Shown here: positions 3,632 through 25,882 of the stretch, piece after piece
Layout of the letters: each line of letters begins with the position of its first letter
How positions within the stretch are numbered: position 1 is the first letter of the stretch
NCBI RefSeq assembly: GCF_004570875.1
Contig: NZ_SPQK01000002.1
Location: 1 to 64,000 of the forward strand
Direction of reading: 5' to 3'
Length of the DNA: 64,000 nucleotides
DNA from: Blastococcus sp. CT_GayMR16
GTDB taxonomy: Bacteria > Actinomycetota > Actinomycetes > Mycobacteriales > Geodermatophilaceae
Notes under the pieces: generated by a model
Told to the model about the DNA's origin: nothing
Seen by the model: only the letters and a program-made list of their open reading frames with translations
The model's database searches: none
Translations under genes and position numbers: made by a program

Positions 3632-4759
3632 GTGCGGACGAGAGCAGCGGTCCTGCGTCAGGCGGAGACCGAGTACGAGATCGTCGACCTCGAGGTGCTG
3701 GACCCGGGGCCGGGCGAGGTGCTGGTCGAGATGGCGTACGCCGGCCTCTGCCACTCCGACGAGCACCTCCGGCACTCCAACCCCGGGGGGCGGTACCCCA
3801 TCGTCGGCGGCCACGAGGGCTCCGCCGTCGTCCAGGCCGTCGGCCCCGGCGTGACCGGCGTCGCGCCCGGCGACCACGTCGTCACCAGCTTCCTGCCCGC
3901 CTGCGGGCACTGCCGGTTCTGTGCCGCCGGCCGGTCGAACCTCTGCGACAAGGGCGCCACCATCGCCAGCGGGCAGCTGCCGAGCGGCACGTTCCCCTTC
4001 CGGCTGGACGACGAGCCGCTGGGAGGGTTCTGCATGGTCGGCGCCTTCGCCGAGCACACCCTGCTCAGCGAGTTCTCCTGCGTGAAGATCGACCCCTGGA
4101 TCCCGCTCGACACGGCCGCGCTGGTCGCCTGCAGCGTCCCGACCGGATGGGGCTCGGCGGTCTACTCCGGGGGCGTGCGGCCCGGGGACACGGTGTTCGT
4201 CGTCGGTCTCGGCGGCGTGGGTGCGAACGCGGTGCAGGGCGCGGTGCACGCCGGGGCGATGCACGTCGTCGGCGTCGACCCGGTCGCCCTGAAGCGGGAG
4301 TTCGCCGAGTCGGTGGGCGCCACGCACACCGTCGCGAGCGCCGACGAGGCGGCGGGACTGGCTCGTCAGCTGTCGCGCGGTACCGGCGCGGACGTCGTCA
4401 TCGTCACGGTCGGGAAGATGTCGGCCGACGCGATGACCGGGGCGATGACGTGCCTGGGCAAGGGCGGCACGCTCGTGCTCACCGCCCTCGGGGATCGGGT
4501 CTCCGACGGCAACGTGACCCTGAGCGGGCAGCTGGCGACGGTCTTCGAGCAGCGCATCCAGGGCTCGCTGTTCGGCTCGTGCAACCCGTTCCGCGACATC
4601 CCGATGCTGCTGCGGCTGCACGAGGAGGGGCGGCTCGAGCTCGACCGGCTGATCACCCGGCGCTACTCGCTGGAGCAACTCAACGAGGGCTACCGCGACC
4701 AGGCGGCCGGCCTCACCGTGCGGGGCCTGCTCGAGCACGCCGCCGTCAGGAGCTCGTGA
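3632..4759 (+). CDS. NDMA-dependent-type zinc alcohol dehydrogenase
   Basis: 375 residues, GTG start after GGAAGGGAG. A medium-chain Zn dehydrogenase: catalytic zinc site GLCHSDEHL near residue 37, GGHEGSAVV near 58, and a structural zinc loop with four Cys (CGHCRFCAAGRSNLC) near 91-106. The Rossmann nucleotide loop GLGGVGANAVQ is near residue 190. The long insert with GTFPFRLDDEPLGGFCMVGAFAEHT and the block RIQGSLFGSCNPFRDIPMLL match actinobacterial NDMA-dependent alcohol dehydrogenases, which keep NAD tightly bound and pass electrons to mycofactocin-type acceptors. No mycofactocin genes are visible nearby. Its stop overlaps the convergent helR stop by 14 bases. Confidence 0.88.
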   Translation: MRTRAAVLRQAETEYEIVDLEVLDPGPGEVLVEMAYAGLCHSDEHLRHSNPGGRYPIVGGHEGSAVVQAVGPGVTGVAPGDHVVTSFLPACGHCRFCAAGRSNLCDKGATIASGQLPSGTFPFRLDDEPLGGFCMVGAFAEHTLLSEFSCVKIDPWIPLDTAALVACSVPTGWGSAVYSGGVRPGDTVFVVGLGGVGANAVQGAVHAGAMHVVGVDPVALKREFAESVGATHTVASADEAAGLARQLSRGTGADVVIVTVGKMSADAMTGAMTCLGKGGTLVLTALGDRVSDGNVTLSGQLATVFEQRIQGSLFGSCNPFRDIPMLLRLHEEGRLELDRLITRRYSLEQLNEGYRDQAAGLTVRGLLEHAAVRSS

Positions 4760-6911
4760 GGACGACGAGTCGCTGGGTCGCCCGGGTCATCGCGACGTAG
4801 CGGTCGACCGCGCCTTCGATGCCCGTGCCGAATTCGTCCGGGTCGACGAGGACGACCAGGTCGAACTCGAGACCCTTCGACAGCTCCGGGGTCAGCGACC
4901 GGACGCGGGCGGTCCCCCGGAAGGAGGGATCGCCGATGACGCAGGCGATCCCCTCGGCGTGCTCGGCGAGCCAGGTGTCGATGATCGTGCCCAGCTCCGA
5001 CGCAGCCCCGTGCAGGACGGGGATGCCGCTGCTGCGGATGGAGGTCGGCACGTTGGCGTCGGGGAGCACGGCCCGGATGACGGGCTCGGCCTCGGCCATG
5101 ACCTCTTCCGGCGTCCGGTAGTTGATGGTCAGCGACGCCAGGTGGATGTCACGTAGTCCGATCCGTTCCAGCCGTTCCCGCCACGACTCGGGAAACCCGT
5201 GCCGGGCCTGCGCGCGGTCGCCGACGACGGTGAAGCTGCCCGATGGACAGCGCAGCATCAGCATCTGCCACTCGGCGTCGGTCAACTCCTGGGCCTCGTC
5301 CACGACGATGTGCGCGAACGGGCCGGCGAGCACATCCGGGTCCGCGGTGGGCAGCGCGGCCTGGTCGACCAGGGCGTCCCTCAGGTCGCCGTGGCGGAGG
5401 CTCGTCATCAGCAGCAGCTCGGAGTCGTCGGCCGCGATCAGTTCGTCGATGACGCCGGCCATGCGGTCGCGTTCGAGGGCGGCCGCGGCCTCCGCCCGGC
5501 GCCTGCGCCGCGACGTCTCCGGGTCGCCGAGCCGCTGCCGTGCCGCGTCGAGCAGCGGCAGGTCGGGCACCGTCCAGGCCTGGGGGTCGGTGCGCTGCAG
5601 CGTCCGGACGTCGTCGGCGCTGAGCTCCGGAGCGCACATCCGCAGGTAGGCGGGCACCGACCAGAGGTCCCCGACGACGTCGGTCGCCTCGAGCAGCGGC
5701 CACGCCCGGTTGAAGACGGCGAGCAGCTCCCGGTTCTGCTGCAACGACTTCCGGAGCAGGTCGTCGTCCTCCTCGCCGTCGTAGGAGTCCACCAGGATCG
5801 TGAGGAGCTGCTCGAGGACCAGGTCGCGTGCCTCGTTGTGCGGGGTGCCCGGGTCGGGAGACGCGAACGCCTCGGCCCAGTCGGCGGCGCTCAGCCGGAG
5901 ATCACCCGCGTCGGTCTCGACCGTCATCCCCGTGGCGGGCGGCTCCTCGTAGAACCGGGCCGCCGCCTCGATCACGGAGCCGACGGCCATGGACGACTTC
6001 AGGCGAGCGACGTCGGGGTCGATCTCGATGCCTGCGTCGCGCCCCTGGGGGACGAGGTCGCGCAGGGTCGCAGTCTGCACGCCCTCCTCCCCGAGGCTGG
6101 GAAGGACGTCGGAGACGTAGGCCAGGTAGGGCTGGCTCGGGCCGACGAACAGGACCCCGCCCCGGTGGTGACCCAGGCGCGGGTCGGAGTAGAGGAGGTA
6201 GGCGGTGCGGTGCAGGGCGACGACGGTCTTGCCCGTGCCGGGACCGCCGTCGACGACGAGGGCGCCGGCCGATCCCGCCCGGATGATGGCGTCCTGGTCG
6301 GCCTGGATGGTGCCGAGGACGTCGCGCATCCGGGCCGAGCGGTTGCTCCCCAGGCTGGCGATGAACGCGGACTGGTCGTCGAGCGCTGCGTTGCTCTCCA
6401 ACGCCTCGATCCCCCCGAACTCATCACGGGCGAACACCTCGTCCCAGTAGTCGGTGACGCGGCCGCGGATCCAGCGGTACCTGCGGCGGCTCACCAAACC
6501 CATGGGGTTGGCGTGGGTCGCGCCGAAGAACGGCTCGGCCCCGGGCAGGCGCCAGTCGAGCAGCAGCTGGCGACCCGCCCTGTCGGTGAGCCCGAGGCGT
6601 CCGATGTACACCGGCTCGGGCTCGGCCGCGTGCACGATGCGGCCGAGGGACAGGTCGAGCCCGAAACGGCGCAGGATGCGCAGGCGGCCGGTCAGCCGGT
6701 GGATCTCCAGGTCCCGGTCCAGGGCTTCCTGGCCGATGCCGCCGGGCGTCCTGCGCTCGGCATCAAGCCGGTCGGTGAGGTCGGCGATCGACTGCGCGAG
6801 GCTCTCGGCGATGGCGGCGAAGTGCGCGTCGTCGGCGGCGATCAGGGTCGGATCCGCCTTGGTGGCGAGGCTGTCGGGAAGGTCGAACGCGCTGGTGGGA
6901 GGGGAAGTCAC
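4746..6911 (-). CDS. helR: HelR/HelD-like RNA polymerase recycling ATPase
   Basis: 721 residues from GTG 6911, which has GGAG nine bases upstream. ATG 6965 would add 18 poorly conserved residues and sits inside a palindrome. It is a superfamily 1 UvrD-like motor: N-terminal coiled coil (residues 20-85, AIAESLAQSIADLTDRLDAE), Walker A GGPGTGKT near 220, Walker B VVDEAQEL near 540, motif NYRTPEE near 600 and the C-terminal VAMTRATQRLVVL. The block PGGIGQEALDRDLEIHRLTGRLR is typical of actinobacterial HelR, which releases stalled or rifamycin-blocked RNA polymerase. Canonical rifamycin-associated element sequence was not found upstream, but several other palindromes are present. Confidence 0.88.
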   Translation of the reverse strand: MTSPPTSAFDLPDSLATKADPTLIAADDAHFAAIAESLAQSIADLTDRLDAERRTPGGIGQEALDRDLEIHRLTGRLRILRRFGLDLSLGRIVHAAEPEPVYIGRLGLTDRAGRQLLLDWRLPGAEPFFGATHANPMGLVSRRRYRWIRGRVTDYWDEVFARDEFGGIEALESNAALDDQSAFIASLGSNRSARMRDVLGTIQADQDAIIRAGSAGALVVDGGPGTGKTVVALHRTAYLLYSDPRLGHHRGGVLFVGPSQPYLAYVSDVLPSLGEEGVQTATLRDLVPQGRDAGIEIDPDVARLKSSMAVGSVIEAAARFYEEPPATGMTVETDAGDLRLSAADWAEAFASPDPGTPHNEARDLVLEQLLTILVDSYDGEEDDDLLRKSLQQNRELLAVFNRAWPLLEATDVVGDLWSVPAYLRMCAPELSADDVRTLQRTDPQAWTVPDLPLLDAARQRLGDPETSRRRRRAEAAAALERDRMAGVIDELIAADDSELLLMTSLRHGDLRDALVDQAALPTADPDVLAGPFAHIVVDEAQELTDAEWQMLMLRCPSGSFTVVGDRAQARHGFPESWRERLERIGLRDIHLASLTINYRTPEEVMAEAEPVIRAVLPDANVPTSIRSSGIPVLHGAASELGTIIDTWLAEHAEGIACVIGDPSFRGTARVRSLTPELSKGLEFDLVVLVDPDEFGTGIEGAVDRYVAMTRATQRLVVLTSS

Positions 6912-6946
6912 GGCATCAGCTCCGATCTGAGATGGGCGACCATAGA

Positions 6947-7048
6947 CCGAAATTTTCGGGCTCATGAGCGACGCCGATTTCTGCTACACATGAGGTGGCG
7001 GAGAGGCGCGCAACCATTGCGCGGGCCCCGCCCCCCCGGACTCATGTG
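6947..7048. promoter_or_regulatory. Palindrome-rich divergent region between helR and the HAD gene
   Basis: Within 102 bases are four dyads: CCGAAATTTTCGG (6947-6959), GCTCATGAGC (6960-6969), a perfect CGCGCAA-CCA-TTGCGCG stem (7007-7023), and CACATGAG (6987-6994) matched by CTCATGTG (7041-7048), which encloses the third. The region must hold the promoters of two divergent genes. The known rifamycin-associated element is a different GGGGCTTGC-type repeat and is not present as such. One or more of these dyads may be operators. Confidence 0.5.
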
Positions 7049-7080
7049 CACAAACCGCGCGAGCTGGGCAGCCTCCGCCC

Positions 7081-7746
7081 ATGACTGAGCAGCGCATCGC
7101 CGTCCTCGATGTCGACGGCACCCTCGTCGACACCAACTACCAGCACGCGCTGGCCTGGTACCGGGCGTTCCGGTCGCTGGGGGAGACGTTCCCGATCTGG
7201 CGCATCCACCGGCTCATCGGCATGGGCGGCGACCAGCTCGTGGCCGCCCTCGGTGGGGACGTCGTCGAGGCCCGCATCGGCGACGAGGTGCGCGAACGCT
7301 GGGTCAAGGAGGCAGACCCGCTGATGGGCGAGGTCGCCCTGCTGCCCGGCGCCCGCGAGCTGATCCTGGCGCTCAAGGAGCGGGGGCACCGGGTGGTGCT
7401 GGCCAGCTCGGGCAAGCCGCACCACGTCGACCACGCGCTGGACATGCTCGACGTCCGGGACGTCGTCGACGGCTGGACGACGAGTGAGGACGTCGAGGAG
7501 ACCAAGCCCGCGCCGGATCTCCTGCACGTGGCCCTGGAGAAGATCGGCGAGCCCACCGACGCCCCGAGCGTCGTCATCGGCGACTCGGTCTACGACGTGG
7601 AGGCGGCCAAGAACGCCGGGATGCCGGCGATCGTCGTCCGCTCCGGGGGATTCGGGGACGACGAACTGCGCGATGCCGGCGCGGTCGCCATCTACGACAC
7701 CCCCGCCGACCTCACCGCGGCGCTGGACGACACCGATCTCGCCTGA
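7081..7746 (+). CDS. HAD-family hydrolase (phosphatase)
   Basis: 221 residues. Motif I DVDGTLVDT (residues 9-17) carries the nucleophile and acid/base Asp pair. Motif II is VLASSG near 104, motif III Lys is in EETKPAPD near 140, and motif IV is GDSVYDVEAA near 166. The helical cap lies between motifs I and II (subclass IA), as in phosphoglycolate phosphatases and beta-phosphoglucomutases. The exact substrate cannot be read from sequence. It is divergent from helR and convergent with the GDPD gene, whose stop is 15 bases away. Confidence 0.9.
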   Translation: MTEQRIAVLDVDGTLVDTNYQHALAWYRAFRSLGETFPIWRIHRLIGMGGDQLVAALGGDVVEARIGDEVRERWVKEADPLMGEVALLPGARELILALKERGHRVVLASSGKPHHVDHALDMLDVRDVVDGWTTSEDVEETKPAPDLLHVALEKIGEPTDAPSVVIGDSVYDVEAAKNAGMPAIVVRSGGFGDDELRDAGAVAIYDTPADLTAALDDTDLA

Positions 7747-7761: not shown

Positions 7762-8601
7762 TCAGCTCGTCGGGGCGTCGCGACCCAGTCGGCGCAGCAT
7801 CGCGTGCGGATTGTCGGTGACGGCGGCGTCGACGCCGAGCTCGCGGACGAGGTCCATGTCGGCGGCGGTGTTCACCGTCCACACGTGCACCTCCTTGCCG
7901 GCGGCGTGGGCGGCCGCGACGTAGTCCGGGTCCGAGCGGATCAGCGAGATGCCCGGCCCGACGGCCGTCGCGCTGCCCAGCAGGAGCTCCCGCCGGACGG
8001 GCCGCAGCCGCTTGCCGATGAGCTGCACGGTCGGCATCCCGGGGGCCAGGTCCGCCATCCGGCGCACCGCCAGCTGGGAGAAGCTCATCATCCGGACGGC
8101 GGGCTTCCCGGCCCACTCGACCGGCGTGCCGTTGCGGATCATGCCGAACCGCTCGAGGCAGGCGACGAGCGCCTCCTCCACCTTCCGGGCGTGCCGGGTC
8201 GGGTGCTTGGTCTCGATCGCCAGGCGCACTGTGCCGGGGCTGGCGCTGATGTACTCGAGCAGCCGCTCCAGGGTGAGCACCAGACCGCTCTCCACGTCGG
8301 GCTCGTCGTTGACGGCGGTGATCTCGTCACCGCCCCAGCGGCTGCGGGGAGACGACCGGCGGGCACCGAAGTGGAACTGCTCGAGCTCGTCGAGGTGCAG
8401 CGCGGACACGACGCCGCGGCCGTTCGACGTGGTGGCGATCCGCCGGTCGTGCACGCACACCAGGACACCGTCGCGGGTCATGCGCACGTCGCACTCGACG
8501 GCGTCGGCGCCGATCTCGGCGGCTCGGCGGTAGGCGGCGAGGGTGTGTTCGGGTGCCTCCGCGGTCGCGCCGCGGTGGGCGACGACCTCCGGACCGGTCA
8601 C
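7762..8601 (-). CDS. Glycerophosphodiester phosphodiesterase family protein
   Basis: 279 residues from GTG 8601, chosen because homologous sequence begins at EVVAHRGA. GDPD signatures: HRGATAEAPEHTLAAY (catalytic His near residue 9; the usual PENT is PEHT here), then ECDVRMTRDGVLVCVHD (metal ligands and second His near 35-50), LAIETKHP near 150 and VWTVN near 240. It hydrolyses glycerophosphodiesters to glycerol-3-phosphate and an alcohol. No signal peptide, so probably cytoplasmic. It lies downstream of gpgS on the same strand (gap about 110 bases), so cotranscription is likely. The frame is open further upstream, so a longer N-terminus is possible. Confidence 0.88.
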   Translation of the reverse strand: MTGPEVVAHRGATAEAPEHTLAAYRRAAEIGADAVECDVRMTRDGVLVCVHDRRIATTSNGRGVVSALHLDELEQFHFGARRSSPRSRWGGDEITAVNDEPDVESGLVLTLERLLEYISASPGTVRLAIETKHPTRHARKVEEALVACLERFGMIRNGTPVEWAGKPAVRMMSFSQLAVRRMADLAPGMPTVQLIGKRLRPVRRELLLGSATAVGPGISLIRSDPDYVAAAHAAGKEVHVWTVNTAADMDLVRELGVDAAVTDNPHAMLRRLGRDAPTS

Positions 8602-8713
8602 CGGAGCGGAACGGGAGCGACCGGCACGACGCGATCTTCCCCTGCCGGTCCGCGCCTCCGCGAGCGGGCCCGCCCCATCCGTCCCAGCGGCCACCCGCAC
8701 CACCGTTCGACCG

Positions 8714-9685
8714 TCAGCCGACCATTCCCGCCCAGAGCGAGCGGTACTCGGGGACGGTCTCCATCGGGGGGCGCTCGTCCACGGCGACGGCGGTGCTGCG
8801 CGGGACGAAGCCCACCCCGTCGTGCCGGAACTGGGTGAGCAGGCCGCTCGCATCCGGCCCCCCGGCGCGGGTGAGGACGGCGGAGACCACCTGGGCGGCC
8901 ATCGCCCCCAATGCCTCCTCGCCCTGCGACGTGTGCCGGCGGACGCCGAGGTCCACCTGTGCGAGCGAGCCGAGCCCGCCGAGCTCCAGCAGGTCGATGA
9001 GCAGCCCGATCTCCACCCCGTATCCGGAGACGAACGGCACCTGCTCCAGGGCGGAGCGGCGGCCGGCGTACTCACCGCCGAGGGGCTGGACGAAGCCGGC
9101 GAGCTCGGGCCACAGCGCGTTGAGCAGGGGCCGGGCGGTCAGCTCGGTGACCCGCCCGCCACCGGCAGGCTGCACCACGCCGTCGACCTCGAGCGGCCGC
9201 GTGTAGCAGCCCTTCACGTAGGCGACCTGGGGATCGGCCAGCAGCGGGCCGAGCAGGCCGGGCACGAAGTGGGCGACGTCGCCGAGCAGGTCGGCGTCGA
9301 GGAAGACGACCAGGTCGCCGGTGGTGGCGGCGAGTGACTTCCACAGCGCCTCGCCCTTGCCGGGGCGGGTGCCGTGCGCGGAGAGGACGTCGGTGGTCGC
9401 GACGACGTCGGCGCCGGCCGCCCGGGCGACGGCCGCGGTGTCGTCTGTGGAGTCGGAGTCCATGACCAGCAGCTCGTCGACCAGGGGCACCCGGCGCACC
9501 CACCGCTCGTGCAGGTCGGCCACCAGATCGCCGACCGTGGCGGCCTCGTTCCGCGCCGGGAGGACGACGCTGACCCGATGGCCACCGCGCCGCTTGGCCC
9601 GCAGCAGGGCATCGAGATCCAGCTCCGCCAGGGCAGCGGCGGACGTCGTCCGGTGCTCGAACCAGGCGCGGGCGTCGGGTCTCAT
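8714..9685 (-). CDS. gpgS: Glucosyl-3-phosphoglycerate synthase
   Basis: 323 residues, GT81/GT2-like fold. It transfers glucose from an NDP-glucose donor to 3-phosphoglycerate, the first step towards glucosylglycerate and methylglucose lipopolysaccharide precursors. Visible features: VSVVLPARNEAATVG near residue 38 (nucleotide site), VMDSDSTDDT near 72, the metal motif FLDADLLGD near 125, GCYTRPLEVDG near 160, and FVSGYGVEIGLLIDLLELGG near 230. These match actinobacterial GpgS over the full length. The ATG at 9685 follows AGTGAGGTG. Its promoter must lie in the 237-base gap to the divergent small gene. Confidence 0.92.
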   Translation of the reverse strand: MRPDARAWFEHRTTSAAALAELDLDALLRAKRRGGHRVSVVLPARNEAATVGDLVADLHERWVRRVPLVDELLVMDSDSTDDTAAVARAAGADVVATTDVLSAHGTRPGKGEALWKSLAATTGDLVVFLDADLLGDVAHFVPGLLGPLLADPQVAYVKGCYTRPLEVDGVVQPAGGGRVTELTARPLLNALWPELAGFVQPLGGEYAGRRSALEQVPFVSGYGVEIGLLIDLLELGGLGSLAQVDLGVRRHTSQGEEALGAMAAQVVSAVLTRAGGPDASGLLTQFRHDGVGFVPRSTAVAVDERPPMETVPEYRSLWAGMVG

Positions 9686-19905: not shown

Positions 19906-20135
19906 GGATGAAGACCGTCGTCAGCCAACGAGTCCCACGCCTCGGTCTCCTCCCGGTAGGACGCGTCCGCCTGGTCGTACGCCGCGCGGACCGCGTCGAA
20001 CCGGGCGCGCCGGTCGGCGTCGTCGAGCAGTCCGGCGATCACCTCCGCAGCAGTCATCCGCTGCTCCCCGGCGCGTATCGCGATGCGCTCGCGAAGGCTC
20101 TTGGGCACCTTGATCGTGGTGAGGAGGTCAGGCAT
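19902..20135 (-). CDS. Antitoxin of the MazF-type pair (ribbon-helix-helix-like)
   Basis: 77 residues. The N-terminal strand-helix-helix LLTTIKVPKSLRERIAIRAGEQRMTAAEVIAGLLDDA (residues 4-40) fits a ribbon-helix-helix DNA-binding domain. The acidic Trp-containing C-terminus (YREETEAWDSLADDGLHP) is the likely toxin-neutralising tail. The complex probably represses its own promoter. A TATCCT hexamer lies seven bases before ATG 20135 with TGTACT 17 bases further upstream, which would give an essentially leaderless mRNA; this promoter call is weak. Confidence 0.82.
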   Translation of the reverse strand: MPDLLTTIKVPKSLRERIAIRAGEQRMTAAEVIAGLLDDADRRARFDAVRAAYDQADASYREETEAWDSLADDGLHP

Positions 20136-20260
20136 ACCAACGAGGATACTCTTAGGGCTACCTTCAGTACACTCTCCTGTGCGCGTGACCGTGTGGTTTC
20201 GCCTCTACGTCGACGGCTTCCGTTCACGGCGATGTCACTCGCCCGGGTATCGCCCCGGTC

Positions 20261-20398
20261 ATGATCGGACTCGTGGTACTCGCCGTCCTCGGATCCTGGT
20301 TCGTCCTCTCCGCCCTCACCGCCGTGGGATGTGCCGCGGTGGTGCGTGGTGGCGTCGCGGAGGACCGTGCCCGCGGCTACCTCAGCTATCGGTCCTGA
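20261..20398 (+). CDS. Candidate 45-aa single-pass membrane protein upstream of formate dehydrogenase
   Basis: ATG 20261 to TGA 20396-20398. The peptide begins MIGLVVLAVLGSWFVLSALTAVGCAAVV, one strong membrane helix, followed by a charged tail (RGGVAEDRARGYLSYRS). No convincing ribosome-binding site precedes it. It ends 55 bases before the GTG of the catalytic subunit, on the same strand, so it could be the first cistron of that operon. The rest of the 20136-20453 gap is upstream region with no other clear element. Evidence is composition and position only. Confidence 0.35.
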   Translation: MIGLVVLAVLGSWFVLSALTAVGCAAVVRGGVAEDRARGYLSYRS

Positions 20399-20453
20399 CG
20401 AGCCGATCACCGTCGCCGTGCCAGACCCGGTTCCGGGTGGCAGAGTTCCGTAG

Positions 20454-23400
20454 GTGAAGACCTGGCTCGACGCGTGGCCGGTGTACCGGCAGTTCACAGG
20501 CTCTGACCCCCTGGGCCGCGGCAAGGCCGCGCGCAGCAAGGCGACCGAGGCCACGGTGTCGCGAACAGCGACCGCCGATCGGGTCGTGCAGAGCGTCTGC
20601 CCCTACTGCGCCGTCGGCTGCGGGCAGAAGGTGTTCGTCAAGGACGAGAAGGTCGTCCAGATCGAGGGCGATCCCGACTCGCCGATCAGCCGCGGCCGGC
20701 TGTGTCCCAAGGGCAGCGCGAGCAAGCAGCTGGTCACCAGCTCGACCCGGGTGACCACCGTGAAGTACCGCCGTCCGTACGGGACCGAGTGGGAAGACCT
20801 CGACCTGGACACGGCGATGGAGATGATCGCCGACCGCGTGCTCGACGCCCGCCGCAAGGGCTGGCAGGACGAGTTCGAGGGCAAGCGCGTCAACCGGACG
20901 ATGGGGATAGCGAGCCTCGGAGGGGCGACCCTCGACAACGAGGAGAACTACCTCATGAAGAAGCTCTACAGCGCCATGGGCGCGATCCAGATCGAGAACC
21001 AGGCCCGGATATAGCACTCCGCGACGGTGCCCGGTCTGGGTGCCTCGTTCGGCCGTGGTGGCGCAACCAACTTCCTGGAAGACCTCGCGAACTCCGACTG
21101 CATCGTCATCGAGGGTTCGAACATGGCCGAGTGCCACCCGGTGGGGTTCCAGTGGGTGACCGAGGCCAAGGCGCGGGGCGCCAAGATCGTGCACATCGAC
21201 CCGCGGTTCACCCGCACCAGCGCGATCGCCGACCTGCACGTGCCGCTGCGCATCGGAACCGACATCGCGTTCCTCGGCGGGCTGATCAAATACGTGCTCG
21301 ACAACGACCTGTACTTCAAGGACTACGTGGTCGCCTACACGAACGCGGCCGCGCTGGTCGGTGAGGAGTTCGTCGACGCCGAGGACCTCGACGGCCTCTT
21401 CTCCGGGTTCGACGCCGAGAGCGGCCACTACGACGAGGCCAGCTGGCAGTACGAGCCGGAGGAGGCACCGCACTCTTCCTCCGAGGACCCGACCGGGGCC
21501 GCGGAGCAGGACCGCACCGAGCAGCACCCCGACGTGAAGGACGCCGACCGCGCCCAGGCCGCCGGCAGCGGCGGGCCGCCGATCCCGGCCAAGCCCAAGC
21601 GGGACGAGACGCTGCAGCACCCGCGCTCGGTCTTCCAGATCCTCAAGCGGCACTTCGACCGCTACACGCCGGAGATGGTGTCCGAGGTGTGCGGCATCGA
21701 GCCCGACGTGTTCGAGCAGGTCGCCCAGTGGGTGACGTCGAACAGCAACCGCGACCGGACGACGGCCTGGGTGTACTCGGTGGGCTGGACGCAGCACAGC
21801 GTCGGCGCGCAGTACATCCGCACGTGCTCGATCCTCCAGACGCTGCTCGGCAACATCGGCCGCCCCGGCGGCGGGATCATGGCGCTGCGCGGGCACGCCA
21901 GCATCCAGGGCTCGACCGACGTCCCGACGCTGTTCAACCTGCTGCCCGGCTACCTGCCCATGCCGCACTCCCTGCAGCACCACACGCTCGACGACTACTG
22001 CGCCGACGCGGAAGGCAAGGCCGGCTTCTGGGGCAACAAGCGCAGCTACATGACCAGCCTGCTCAAGAGCTACTGGGGCGACGCCGCCCAGCCCGGGAAC
22101 GACTTCGCCTTCGACTACCTGCCCAAGATCAGCGGCGACCACAGCTCGTACCAGACGATCGCCGAGATGATCGAGGGCAAGGTCTACGGCTACTTCCTGG
22201 TGGGCGAGAACCCGTCGGTCGGGCACCCGAACGGCCGGATGAACCGGTTCGGTCTGGCCAACCTCGAGTGGCTCGTCGTCCGCGATCTGCAGATGATCGA
22301 GTCGGCGACCTTCTGGAAGGAGTCCCCCGAGATCGAGACGGGGGAGCTGGCCCCGGAGACGATCGGCACCGAGGTCTTCTTCATGCCGGCCGCCAGCCAC
22401 GTGGAGAAGGAAGGCACCTTCACCCAGACGCAGCGCGTGCTGCAGTGGCGGCACAAGGCGGTCGATCCGCCGGGCGACGCCAAGAGCGACCTGTGGTTCT
22501 ACTTCCACCTGGGCCGGATGCTGCGGGAGCGGCTGAAGGACTCGACCGACCCGCGGGACCGTCCGCTGCTCGACCTCACGTGGGACTACCCGACCCAGGG
22601 CACCGACGCCGAGCCGAGCGCCGAGGACGTGCTGCGCGAGATCAACGGCGTCGGCCCGGACGGACGGGCGCTGTCGTCCTACATGCAGATGAAGGACGAC
22701 GGCTCGACCAGCGGCGGCTGCTGGATCTACTGCGGCGTCTACGCCGACGAGGTGAACCAGGCCGCACGTCGCAAGCCGGGTCGCGAGCAGGGGGCGGTCG
22801 CCTCCGAGTGGGGCTGGGCCTGGCCGCTGAACCGCCGGATGCTCTACAACCGCGCCTCGGCCGACCCCGCCGGCAAGCCCTGGAGCGAGCGCAAGAAGTA
22901 CGTCTTCTGGGACGAGGAAGCCGGCGAGTGGACCGGGCCCGACGTGCCCGACTTCGAGAAGAACAAGCGGCCCGACTACGTGCCGCCGGACGGCGCGAAG
23001 GCGCAGGACGCCATCGGCGGCGCCGACCCGTTCGTCATGCAGGGCGACGGGAAGGCGTGGCTGTTCGCGCCGTCCGGGCTGGTCGACGGCCCGATGCCGA
23101 CCCACTACGAGCCCGCGGAGTCCGTCGTCGAGAACGCCTTCTACAAGCAGCAGGCGAACCCGACGCTGGAGAGGATCGGCGGCCCGTGGAACCGCGCGAA
23201 CCCGACGCGCAGCGAGGTCTTCCCGTTCCAGGTGACCACCTACCGGCTGACCGAGCACCACACGGCCGGCGGGATGAGTCGCACGCTGCCCTACCTGGCG
23301 GAGCTGCAGCCGGAGTTCTTCGTCGAGGTGAGCCCCGAGCTCGCCGACCTGCGCGGGCTGACCCACGGCGACTTCGCCACGCTGGTCAGCACGCGGACGG

Positions 23401-23747
23401 CGCTGGAAGCCAAGGTGCTGGTGACCGAGCGGGTGCGGCCGATCAAACTGCGCGACGGCACGGTCGTGCACCAGATCGGGATGCCCTATCACTGGTCCTA
23501 CGCCGGCATCTCGACCGGAGACTCGGCCAACGACCTGCTCGGGATCGTCCTGGACGCGAACACCCACATCCAGGAGTCCAAGGTCAGCACCTGCGACATC
23601 GTGCCGGGACGGCGGCCGCGCGGGCCCGCGCTGCTCGAGTTCGTGGAGTCCTACCGACGGCGGGCCGGCGTGGACTCGGGCCGGGTGGGCCTCAACGGGC
23701 GCGCGCCCGACGACGCGCCGATGGTGAAGGGACAGTCCGGCTCATGA
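20454..23747 (+). CDS. Formate dehydrogenase catalytic subunit, selenocysteine encoded by in-frame UAG
   Basis: Molybdenum/tungsten bis-MGD formate dehydrogenase, 1097 residues when TAG 21012-21014 is read through. N-terminal [4Fe-4S] Cys at 49, 52, 56 and 84 (CPYCAVGCG...LCPKG). The interruption is at residue 187, in QARI-x-HSATVPGLGASFGRG, exactly where FdhF/FdnG-type enzymes have selenocysteine followed by His. No other stop interrupts the frame. A SECIS-like hairpin starts after it. Further domains: GSNMAECHPVGFQW (MGD site), an acidic linker at about 320-375, GNIGRPGGGIMALRGHASIQGSTD, and a C-terminal molybdopterin-guanine-dinucleotide binding barrel (FQVTTYRLTEHHTAGGMSR). No twin-arginine signal is visible, so the active site is probably cytoplasmic. 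It forms an operon with the two following genes. Confidence 0.93.
21012..21014 (+). other. UAG codon at the selenocysteine position
   Basis: The codon TAG lies in frame between ...ENQARI and HSATVPGLG of the formate dehydrogenase. In related enzymes this residue is selenocysteine (usually UGA) or cysteine. Upstream and downstream frames are identical (both starts are multiples of three apart) and sequence conservation continues without a missing residue. Recoding of UAG as selenocysteine needs a tRNA-Sec with a CUA anticodon, which is not in this window. From memory, UAG-directed selenocysteine insertion has been reported in Geodermatophilus and Blastococcus. Confidence 0.9.
21021..21048 (+). 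promoter_or_regulatory. Bacterial SECIS-like hairpin with GGUCU loop
   Basis: GGTGCCC (21026-21032) pairs with GGGTGCC (21038-21044), including two G-U pairs, around the loop GGTCT (21033-21037). A lower stem GCGA/TCGT (21021-21024 and 21045-21048) is separated from the upper stem by bulged C 21025. The loop starts 18 bases after the TAG, the same spacing and the same GGUCU loop as the Escherichia coli fdhF SECIS, where SelB binds. The element lies within the coding sequence, as required in bacteria. Confidence 0.85.
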
Positions 23748-23772: not shown

Positions 23773-24834
23773 ATGACCTCGATCAGTTCGGCGAGCCCGG
23801 CACTGACCGGCAACGATCCGAAGAACCGGCTGTTCGGCCCGTTGCCCGACGTCTCGGCGGAGGCCGGCTACGTCGAGGAGCACCCGAAGCGGGTCGGGTT
23901 CTTCACCGACACCTCGGTCTGCATCGGCTGCAAGGCCTGCGAGGTCGCGTGCAAGGAGTGGAACACCCTGCCGATGGACGACTCGCACGGCACGCGCGAC
24001 GTCATCGGGCTGTCGGGGATGTCCTACGACAACACCGGCCAGCTCGGCGCGAACTCCTGGCGGCACGTCGCGTTTATCGAGCAGACGCGCGTCGTCGACC
24101 TGCCGATGCCGGCGGTCGGCCTTCCCGGGGCGCTGAACCGGCCGGAGATGCCCGCGCCCGACAGCGGCGACCTGGATAGCACCGCGAAGGCCCAGGCCAG
24201 TGTGCTCAACGCCGAGGCCCTGTCGGAGTTCGATCCGCAGACGGCGCAGACCGGGGCGGATAAGCAGATCCGCTGGCTGATGAGCTCCGACGTCTGCAAG
24301 CACTGCACGCACGCCGGCTGCCTGGACGCCTGCCCGACCGGGGCGTTGTTCCGCACCGAGTTCGGCACCGTCGTCGTGCAGCAGGACATCTGCAACGGCT
24401 GCGGCTACTGCGTGCCGTCGTGCCCGTACGGCGTCATCGACCAGCGCAAGGACGACGGCCGGGTCTTCAAGTGCACGATGTGCTACGACCGGCTGACCGA
24501 CGGGCTGATGCCGGCCTGCGCGACGGCCTGCCCGACCCAGTCGATCCAGTTCGGCGACCTCGACGAGCTGCAGGAACGGGCCGACGCCCGGCTCGCGACG
24601 CTCCAGTCGCAGGGCGTGGAGACCGCCCGCCTGTACGGGCGGGACGAGAACGACGGCGTCGGCGGCAACGGGGCGTTCTTCCTGCTCCTGGACGAGCCGG
24701 AGGTCTACGGCCTCCCGCCGGACCCGATCGTGCCGGCACGCGACCTGCCCGCGATGTGGAAGGCCGCCGCCACGGGGGCAGCGATGATCGTCGGGGTGGC
24801 TGTCTCCGCCGTCCTGGGTTCGCGGAGGCGGTGA
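23773..24834 (+). CDS. Formate dehydrogenase iron-sulfur (beta) subunit
   Basis: 353 residues. Four ferredoxin-type [4Fe-4S] clusters are indicated by CIGCKACEVACKEW near residue 50, CKHCTHAGCLDACPTG near 176, CNGCGYCVPSCPYG near 207 and CTMCYDRL...PACATACPT near 236-258. A single membrane helix near the C-terminus (AAATGAAMIVGVAVSAVLG) anchors it, as in FdnH-type subunits. It relays electrons from the selenocysteine subunit to the membrane subunit. A GAGGAGG precedes ATG 23773. It lies 25 bases after the catalytic gene and four before the next one. Confidence 0.93.
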   Translation: MTSISSASPALTGNDPKNRLFGPLPDVSAEAGYVEEHPKRVGFFTDTSVCIGCKACEVACKEWNTLPMDDSHGTRDVIGLSGMSYDNTGQLGANSWRHVAFIEQTRVVDLPMPAVGLPGALNRPEMPAPDSGDLDSTAKAQASVLNAEALSEFDPQTAQTGADKQIRWLMSSDVCKHCTHAGCLDACPTGALFRTEFGTVVVQQDICNGCGYCVPSCPYGVIDQRKDDGRVFKCTMCYDRLTDGLMPACATACPTQSIQFGDLDELQERADARLATLQSQGVETARLYGRDENDGVGGNGAFFLLLDEPEVYGLPPDPIVPARDLPAMWKAAATGAAMIVGVAVSAVLGSRRR

Positions 24835-24838
24835 CGGC

Positions 24839-25882
24839 ATGACGAGCGGGATCGCGACACCGGGCGCCGGCTGGCGCAAGGCCGACGGCGCGGCAGCGCA
24901 GAAGAACCAGAAGCGGCGCCGGCGGGGCAACGGCCGCCGGGGGCGCAACGCCGAGATGGCGATGGTCGACGAGGCCGAGTTCACCTCGTACTACGGCCGC
25001 CCGATCATCAAGGCGCCGGTGTGGAAGACGCCCGACGTGCCGCTCTACCTGTTCCTCGGCGGTGCTGCGGGCACGTCCTCGATCCTCGCTGCGCTGGCCG
25101 ACGCGAGCGCTCGGCCGTCACTGAGCCGCGTGGGTCGGTTCGTGGCCGGGGGTGGGGCGATCGCCTCGGTCGGGTTCCTGGTGCACGACCTCGGCCGGCC
25201 CGAGCGGTTCCTGCACATGCTGCGGGTCATGAAGCCGACGTCGGCGCTGTCGGTGGGGACCTACATCCTGTCGCCGTTCAGCGCGGCGGCCGGCGCGACG
25301 GCAGCGGTCGAGCTGCTCGGCTGGTTCCCGCGACTCAAGCGCTTCGGCGGAGCGGTGTCGGCCTTGTTCGGTGGTCCGATGGCGACCTACACGGCGGTGC
25401 TGCTGGCCAACACAGCCGTGCCGTCGTGGAACCACTTCCACACGAAGCTGCCGTTCGTCTTCGCCGGGTCCGCCATGGCCGCCGGCGGGGGACTCTGCAT
25501 GATCTTCACGCCGGTCGACGAGGCCGGGCCGGCCCGCAAGATGGCGGTCGCCGGTGCGGCGGTCGAACTGGGTGTCGTGCACCAGATCGAGAGCGACGAG
25601 AGCATCGTCTCCGAGCCGTACCACCTGGGCCGGGCGGGCAGGTTCATGCAAGCGGCGAAGACCTGCACCGCTGCGGGCGCCGGGCTCACCGTCGTGGCCG
25701 GACGCACCCGCCTCGGGGCGGTTGCGTCAGGAACGCTATTGGCCGCGGGCTCGCTGCTGACCCGGTTCGGGGTCTTCGACGCGGGGATGGCCAGCGCCCG
25801 GGACCCGAAGTACACCGTGATCCCGCAGCGCGAGCGCATGGCTGCTCGAGATCGCGAGCACGCCTCCACCATCACGCGCTGA
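24839..25882 (+). CDS. NrfD/PsrC-type membrane subunit of formate dehydrogenase
   Basis: 347 residues. A basic cytoplasmic N-terminus (KNQKRRRRGNGRRGR) and the segment SYYGRPIIKAPVWKTPDVPLYLFLGGAAG are followed by about eight membrane helices. The VHDLGRPERFLHMLRVMKPTSALSVGTYIL block near 120 is typical of NrfD/polysulfide-reductase membrane subunits, which bind quinone without haem. It therefore probably passes formate electrons to menaquinone, instead of the cytochrome b subunit used by FdnI. This fits menB elsewhere in the window. It is the last gene of the operon. Confidence 0.9.
   Translation: MTSGIATPGAGWRKADGAAAQKNQKRRRRGNGRRGRNAEMAMVDEAEFTSYYGRPIIKAPVWKTPDVPLYLFLGGAAGTSSILAALADASARPSLSRVGRFVAGGGAIASVGFLVHDLGRPERFLHMLRVMKPTSALSVGTYILSPFSAAAGATAAVELLGWFPRLKRFGGAVSALFGGPMATYTAVLLANTAVPSWNHFHTKLPFVFAGSAMAAGGGLCMIFTPVDEAGPARKMAVAGAAVELGVVHQIESDESIVSEPYHLGRAGRFMQAAKTCTAAGAGLTVVAGRTRLGAVASGTLLAAGSLLTRFGVFDAGMASARDPKYTVIPQRERMAARDREHASTITR

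What the first reader, a model, noticed from the sequence alone, without database searches (positions are those of the whole stretch)
20454..23747. Formate dehydrogenase whose selenocysteine is encoded by UAG instead of UGA
The catalytic gene is intact except for TAG at 21012-21014, precisely at the residue that is selenocysteine in related enzymes (context QARI-x-HSATVPGLG). The frame before and after is the same, nothing is deleted, and codon use is normal on both sides. An 18-base spacer then leads to a hairpin with a GGUCU loop, the same loop and spacing as the E. coli fdhF SECIS. Established knowledge: UAG-reading tRNA-Sec and UAG-directed selenocysteine insertion have, to my recollection, been reported in Geodermatophilus and Blastococcus (Mukai and colleagues, 2016). 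Here the complete structural operon and its SECIS can be read directly. An automatic annotation would split this gene in two or call it a pseudogene.
Basis: partly seen in the sequence, partly recalled or inferred. Interest (0 to 1): 0.97.

Follow-up and report, generated by a model that had tools for sequence, protein, structure and literature searches.

The report
Selenocysteine read from UAG stop codon
This bacterium very probably inserts the selenium amino acid selenocysteine into its formate dehydrogenase at a UAG stop codon instead of the usual UGA, a code change already reported for its bacterial family.

Summary
An in-frame TAG at 21012-21014 is residue 187 of an otherwise open 1097-residue formate dehydrogenase, followed by a hairpin with a GGUCU loop. 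The same genome holds selA, selB, selD and a tRNA-Sec with anticodon CUA, so UAG-directed selenocysteine is strongly supported, though not proven biochemically here. It is not new: tRNA-Sec(CUA) with such formate dehydrogenases is in print for Geodermatophilaceae (PMC5330540, citing Mukai 2016).

New detail from the survey. (1) All 118 family rows that cover residue 187 hold TAG; the 70 rows listed elsewhere in the order hold TGA and no TAG. (2) In a tree of 33 chosen enzymes the TAG ones are not one clade (p-AU 6e-12; at least three changes forced), so separately placed lineages carry TAG. Every fetched one with readable context has the rare codon AUA before it (38 of 38 different sequences). 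(3) One Geodermatophilus-group genome carries tRNA-Sec(CUA) and also tRNA-Sec(UCA) beside a UGA-containing AhpD-like gene at a transposase-bearing contig end: a candidate organism with two selenocysteine codons. (4) This genome has a second UAG gene, of the WAxxUGC family.

The parts
20454..23747 (+). Formate dehydrogenase catalytic subunit (NF041513), 1097 residues, GTG start overlapping the end of ORF 20083-20457, U at residue 187
21012..21014 (+). In-frame TAG, very probably read as selenocysteine
21009..21011 (+). Rare isoleucine codon ATA just before the TAG (2 of 39 Ile codons of this gene are ATA); the same in 38 of 38 different TAG sequences
21026..21044 (+). SECIS-type hairpin: 7-pair stem GGUGCCC/GGGUGCC, loop GGUCU at 21033-21037
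23773..24834 (+). Iron-sulfur subunit (4Fe-4S dicluster; FDH-beta-like, 182.4 bits, below that model's cut-off of 334.7)
24839..25882 (+). NrfD-type membrane anchor subunit
   Evidence: PF03916, 38.6 bits; no NCBIfam match

Best explanation
The window encodes a formate dehydrogenase with iron-sulfur and membrane-anchor subunits whose selenocysteine codon is UAG. Shown by sequence: the TAG at the Sec position, the conserved hairpin behind it, and in the same genome tRNA-Sec(CUA), SelA, SelB and SelD. Inferred: SelA loads selenium from SelD onto Ser-tRNA-Sec(CUA), SelB binds it together with the GGUCU hairpin, and the ribosome inserts Sec at this UAG in competition with release factor 1, while UAG still ends some ordinary genes. 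Also inferred: the tRNA anticodon changed from UCA to CUA in an ancestor of most of this family, and selenoprotein genes, including separately placed formate dehydrogenase lineages, were converted to UAG.
For: Own genome: tRNA-Sec C11:255577-255668 at 66.4 bits, anticodon CTA; a second hit over cut-off (48.2 bits) is a serine tRNA by ARAGORN. selB 286.6 bits, selA 414.6, selD 392, all over cut-off, in one cluster in L007. Family of 112 genomes: 108 have a tRNA-Sec hit over 60 bits; 101 of these carry CTA (one of them TCA as well) and 7 only TCA. 118 of the 127 formate dehydrogenase rows cover residue 187 and all 118 hold TAG, from 98 of the 100 genomes with a match; the place of the TAG was checked in sequence for 46 of these genes. 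Stem covariation. Two further protein families hold TAG: WAxxUGC 4 of 4 matches, TAG at the U; UGSC 72 of 95 rows with a TAG inside, 23 with no stop, none with TGA (place of the TAG checked in 4). UAG remains a normal stop: in a crude gene pick, 3 of 28 window genes other than the split formate dehydrogenase end in TAG.
Against: No protein or selenium measurement here. Single hairpins are not more stable than shuffles. G097 and G098 have TAG enzymes but no tRNA-Sec over 60 bits (72% and 80% complete assemblies). G079 has two formate dehydrogenase copies lacking the Sec segment. This genome's own UGSC protein has no stop inside.
Confidence: 0.95

Rival explanations
1. The TAG is a plain nonsense mutation and the gene is a pseudogene, or a sequencing error for TGA.
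For: Reading with table 11 splits the frame into ORFs of 186 and 906 residues.
Against: 118 of 118 covering rows in the family hold TAG, both sides of the TAG keep high GC3 (0.94 before, 0.97 over the 507 codons read after), and tRNA-Sec(CUA) is present.
Confidence: 0.01
2. UAG is read as pyrrolysine or by an ordinary amber suppressor, not as selenocysteine.
For: ARAGORN labels the tRNA 'tRNA-Pyl' because of its CTA anticodon.
Against: The tRNA matches Rfam tRNA-Sec over cut-off, sits by selA, selB and selD, and closely resembles the TCA tRNA-Secs of genera g5-g7 apart from the anticodon and some stem places (sequences). The position is TGA or Cys in relatives. Genes for pyrrolysine synthesis were not searched for.
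Confidence: 0.02
3. Two polypeptides are made, the second restarting after the UAG, without selenocysteine.
For: An ORF with GTG start runs from 21027.
Against: The restart would lie inside the hairpin stem and split the molybdopterin domain match (148-614), losing the residue at the Sec place. No ribosome binding site was assessed.
Confidence: 0.02

Closest known systems
UAG-selenocysteine with tRNA-Sec(CUA) in Geodermatophilaceae (Mukai et al. 2016, cited as ref 56 in PMC5330540)
   Same: Same bacterial family, same anticodon, formate dehydrogenase and UGSC proteins (passage of PMC5330540)
   Different: Nothing in the window differs in kind; this is another genome. Mukai 2016 itself was not held; that it showed the insertion by 75Se labelling or mass spectrometry is recalled.
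UAG-Sec AhpC of Blastococcus saxobsidens DD2 (PMC5330540, passage)
   Same: A UAG-Sec protein of the AhpC-TSA fold in the same family; this genome has a WAxxUGC protein with an AhpC-TSA domain and TAG
   Different: Whether it is the same gene was not tested
UGA-selenocysteine formate dehydrogenases of other Actinomycetota
   Same: Same enzyme, same hairpin place, loop GGUCU in 11 of 15 and AGUCU in 4
   Different: TGA instead of TAG, and AUU (13 of 15) rather than AUA just before it
Plasmid-borne selB-selA-selC-selD-fdh clusters (Arthrobacter pYA7-1a, Tsukamurella plasmid 17)
   Same: tRNA-Sec with anticodon TCA by ARAGORN, lying between selA and selD on plasmids of Actinomycetota
   Different: In the G058 stretch only the tRNA and one selenoprotein-like gene were seen; no SelB there in the listed rows

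Membership tests
UAG-directed selenocysteine system (Geodermatophilaceae type) | tRNA-Sec with CUA anticodon in the genome | tested here: met
UAG-directed selenocysteine system (Geodermatophilaceae type) | TAG at the position that is TGA or Cys in relatives | tested here: met
UAG-directed selenocysteine system (Geodermatophilaceae type) | SelA, SelB, SelD in the genome | tested here: met
   all over curated cut-offs
UAG-directed selenocysteine system (Geodermatophilaceae type) | Selenium found at the UAG-encoded residue | not testable with these tools
   needs 75Se labelling or mass spectrometry
Bacterial SECIS | Stem-loop just behind the Sec codon, kept by paired changes, absent from Cys homologues | tested here: met
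   TAG 264 of 266 cells paired, TGA 98 of 105, Cys 121 of 189; the fourth pair occurs as GT, CG, GC and TA. Folding energy alone gives no support
Actinobacterial formate dehydrogenase NF041513 | Score over curated cut-off of 1400 bits | tested here: met
   1907.6 bits
ResA-like WAxxUGC protein NF041054 (L275, own genome) | Score over curated cut-off of 300 bits with U in WAxxUGC | tested here: met
   452 bits, TAG at U115
Organism with two selenocysteine codons (G058) | Both tRNA-Sec species and a candidate gene for each codon in one assembly | tested here: met
   contamination or misassembly of the contig end not excluded
Organism with two selenocysteine codons (G058) | Both codons yield Sec in the cell | not testable with these tools
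   needs protein data

The most novel reading that the evidence does not exclude
After the lineage had moved its selenocysteine codon from UGA to UAG, one member (G058, in the genus group of Geodermatophilus nigrescens) regained UGA as a second selenocysteine codon by taking up a mobile pair: tRNA-Sec(UCA) and an adjacent UGA-selenocysteine AhpD-like gene, both served by its native SelB. In the other direction, formate dehydrogenase genes of several lineages were each rewritten to AUA-UAG. So the selenocysteine codon behaves as a local convention set by whichever tRNA-Sec is present, and the AUA before UAG is a selected part of the signal.
Probability: 0.5. Interest if true: 0.7.

Novelty: already known. 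Interest (0 to 1): 0.42.

Why it matters
It confirms a natural genetic-code change across most of a bacterial family and offers a test bed: a boundary between UCA and CUA tRNA-Sec inside one family, several separately placed enzyme lineages that all carry UAG, and one genome that may use two stop codons for the same amino acid. That makes it possible to ask how a codon is captured, what context it needs and whether a lost codon can return by gene transfer. Plain table-11 reading splits the gene, and ARAGORN names the tRNA pyrrolysine.

Tried and rejected
Own-genome scan for TAG-N18-GGTCT gave 11 hits, and the pattern read backwards gave 22, so the scan has no power by itself. Only the window gene has GC3 over 0.9 on both sides of the TAG; two others (L135, L137) have long frames but GC3 of 0.57-0.78. 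The scan misses the WAxxUGC gene, whose loop differs.

Rows with an extra TGA were checked: in L150 and L151 the TGA is at the end of the gene, and in L152 (a row not covering residue 187) it is at the edge of the matched stretch. Not evidence for UGA-Sec.

A first tree was invalid because some rows were translated in a wrong frame; it was rebuilt with the frame chosen by likeness to the window protein, and only one search is used. One search holds 33 chosen rows (16 TAG, 12 TGA, 5 Cys) out of the 135 loci plus the window; L266, which was, was left out as a long branch, and L262 and L267 were not put in. The first anticodon script missed or misread rows; one search replaces it. One search translated a misplaced stretch; one search replaces it.

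A scan of G058 for TGA-N18-GGTCTG gave 4 hits (control 3), not followed up. Three stop-plus-GGTCT hits in contig C17 were judged non-coding by eye only. The AhpD-like gene has a different loop and was seen by reading the sequence. No relative of it was found in viral contigs; all 327 plasmid records with a match are under 60% identity, and plasmid neighbourhoods of those were not read.

Single-hairpin folding energies gave no support.

Full report
Observation. The frame 20454-23747 reads through one TAG at 21012-21014 to give a 1097-residue formate dehydrogenase (NCBIfam NF041513, 1907.6 bits against a cut-off of 1400). Iron-sulfur and NrfD-type subunits follow at 23773-24834 and 24839-25882. 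The TAG is residue 187. Eleven bases later a seven-pair stem with loop GGUCU begins; the loop starts 18 bases after the TAG.

Machinery. The same genome (4.52 Mb, 47 contigs; the window is C22:1-64000) has one clear tRNA-Sec at C11:255577-255668 (66.4 bits). ARAGORN reads its anticodon as CTA and calls it tRNA-Pyl; the next two Rfam hits (48.2 and 37.8 bits) are serine tRNAs. In L007 lie selB (4492-6237, minus), selA (6228-7544, minus) and selD (8355-9362, plus), at 286.6, 414.6 and 392 bits, all over NCBI's cut-offs.

Family census. In the 112 genomes held for the family, 108 have a tRNA-Sec match over 60 bits. I read the anticodon in all 110 such genes: 102 CTA (101 in the scanned loci, one in L149) and 8 TCA. 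By genome this is 101 with CTA and 7 with TCA only (genera g5, g6, g7); one of the 101, G058, has both. Four genomes (G067, G071, G097, G098) have none over 60 bits. The formate dehydrogenase search lists 127 rows in 100 genomes; 118 rows cover residue 187 and all 118 hold a TAG, nine do not cover it. G033 and G079 have no covering row. Genera g5 to g7 have no match at 1e-100. Where sequence was fetched the TAG is at residue 187: one search examined 138 loci, found the position in 135 and counted 93 TAG, 15 TGA and 27 Cys. Of the 93, 47 are G-handle loci (46 genes) and 46 are named loci; the two sets overlap, so they are not 93 independent genomes. In the order, 270 of 397 genomes had a match; of the rows listed, 70 are outside the family and all hold TGA and no TAG (further rows were not listed). 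In a draw of 396 genomes from the phylum, no listed row outside the family that covers residue 187 has TAG without TGA. Several rows there hold TGA together with TAG or TAA, and the places of those stops were not checked; some covering rows have no stop.

The hairpin. Among 38 different TAG sequences 264 of 266 stem cells are standard pairs and 36 of 38 sequences pair at all seven places; in 15 TGA sequences 98 of 105 cells and 8 of 15; in 27 Cys sequences 121 of 189 cells and none. Sliding one arm by one to three bases drops the TAG figure from 0.99 to 0.29-0.64. The fourth stem pair alone occurs as GT, CG, GC and TA. Folding energy of a single hairpin is not special.

Separate lineages. A tree of 33 chosen formate dehydrogenases does not put the 16 TAG rows together; holding them together costs 176 log-likelihood units (p-AU 6.1e-12), and well supported branches force at least three changes of label. 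L151 (G097) falls with TGA enzymes of another family of the order (f16), and L174 (G104) and L175 (G038) fall by the Cys enzymes. So formate dehydrogenases of several ancestries, all inside this one bacterial family, carry TAG. My reading is that genes gained or kept from UGA users were rewritten once the tRNA read only UAG; some placements could also reflect old paralogues. In the fetched TAG genes with readable context the codon before the TAG is ATA (38 of 38 different sequences, L151, L174 and L175 among them), while TGA genes have ATT (13) or ATA (2) and Cys genes have GTN (27 of 27). In the window gene only 2 of 39 isoleucine codons are ATA. For UGSC genes the four TAG sequences I looked at have GAT before the TAG and the eight Cys ones have GAC. 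WAxxUGC genes do not follow the rule (TAC three times, TGG once). A context that weakens termination is my inference.

Other UAG genes. The genome's AhpC-TSA search gave nine matches, one with a TAG inside. It is a ResA-like WAxxUGC protein (452 bits, cut-off 300) with TAG at the U; 4 of 112 family genomes have a match at 1e-40, all with TAG. The UGSC family search gave 95 rows in 54 genomes: 72 with a TAG inside, 23 without a stop, none with TGA; this genome's own copy has no stop.

A genome with both. G058 shares genus group g3 with G045, whose contig C2 of 1,526,345 bases has the same length as a Geodermatophilus nigrescens contig. It also has a tRNA-Sec(UCA) of 81.8 bits, the best score in the family, 1.2 kb from the end of contig C17. 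About 300 bases away on the other strand is a TIGR01926 peroxidase-related gene (112.6 bits, cut-off 81.8) with a TGA at the second Cys of its CxxC motif; 29 of 29 family homologues compared have Cys there. A hairpin ACGCAGA-GUU-UCUGCGU follows the TGA but is no more stable than shuffles (z 0.22). The first 5 kb of this contig have a G+C of 0.64, against about 0.77 in its middle and 0.772 on the C11 stretch, and transposase-type genes lie within the first 15 kb. The closest plasmid matches to the tRNA lie in sel-fdh clusters on Arthrobacter and Tsukamurella plasmids, with TCA anticodons. My reading is a mobile UGA-Sec pair taken into a UAG-Sec cell. Contamination, misassembly or decay are not excluded, and it is one genome of 112.

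What is in print. PMC5330540 (passages) states that three Geodermatophilaceae genomes have tRNA-Sec with anticodon CUA, as reported by Mukai 2016 with formate dehydrogenase and UGSC selenoproteins, and adds a UAG AhpC in Blastococcus saxobsidens DD2. PMC10778597 (passages) repeats the general point that other stop and sense codons are recoded to Sec. A 2026 review, PMC13188914 (passages), has no occurrence of Geodermatophil, Blastococcus or CUA. Mukai 2016 was not held. Searches on these terms and on tRNASec with transfer terms showed, in titles and starts of abstracts, nothing on a two-anticodon genome or on the AUA context; this covers open-licence papers only, mostly by listing. I therefore file the finding itself as already known, and the two-codon genome and the separate lineages as the novel case.

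Noticed in passing
L148:1173-1263 (tRNA, minus) and L148:1579-2157 (plus): In G058, tRNA-Sec(UCA) next to an AhpD-like gene with in-frame TGA at the second Cys of CxxC, at a low-GC contig end with transposase-type genes, in a genome whose other tRNA-Sec is CUA.
   Followed up: partly
L275:955-2082 (minus), own genome C34: Second UAG gene of the window's genome: WAxxUGC protein, WAPY-U-GC, with hairpin CCUGCC-CGGGU-GGCAGG behind the TAG.
   Followed up: yes
window 21009-21011 and the same codon in 38 different TAG sequences: Rare codon ATA before TAG in all 38; ATT or ATA before TGA; GTN before Cys. UGSC: GAT before TAG 4 of 4, GAC before TGC 8 of 8.
   Followed up: partly
L282, L283 (G079): Both formate dehydrogenase copies lack the Sec codon and hairpin segment, with different left edges and the same right edge, leaving the frame broken; deletion or assembly artefact.
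   Followed up: partly
L009-L014, L017 (genera g5-g7): Same-family genomes with tRNA-Sec(UCA) but no formate dehydrogenase match at 1e-100; which selenoproteins they use was not found.
   Followed up: no
L295, L296: selB-selA-selD-fdh clusters on an Arthrobacter and a Tsukamurella plasmid, with tRNA-Sec (tca) between selA and selD.
   Followed up: partly
L036 and L160 (G036): Two tRNA-Sec(CUA) genes in one 88% complete genome, on different contigs; may be a strain mixture.
   Followed up: no
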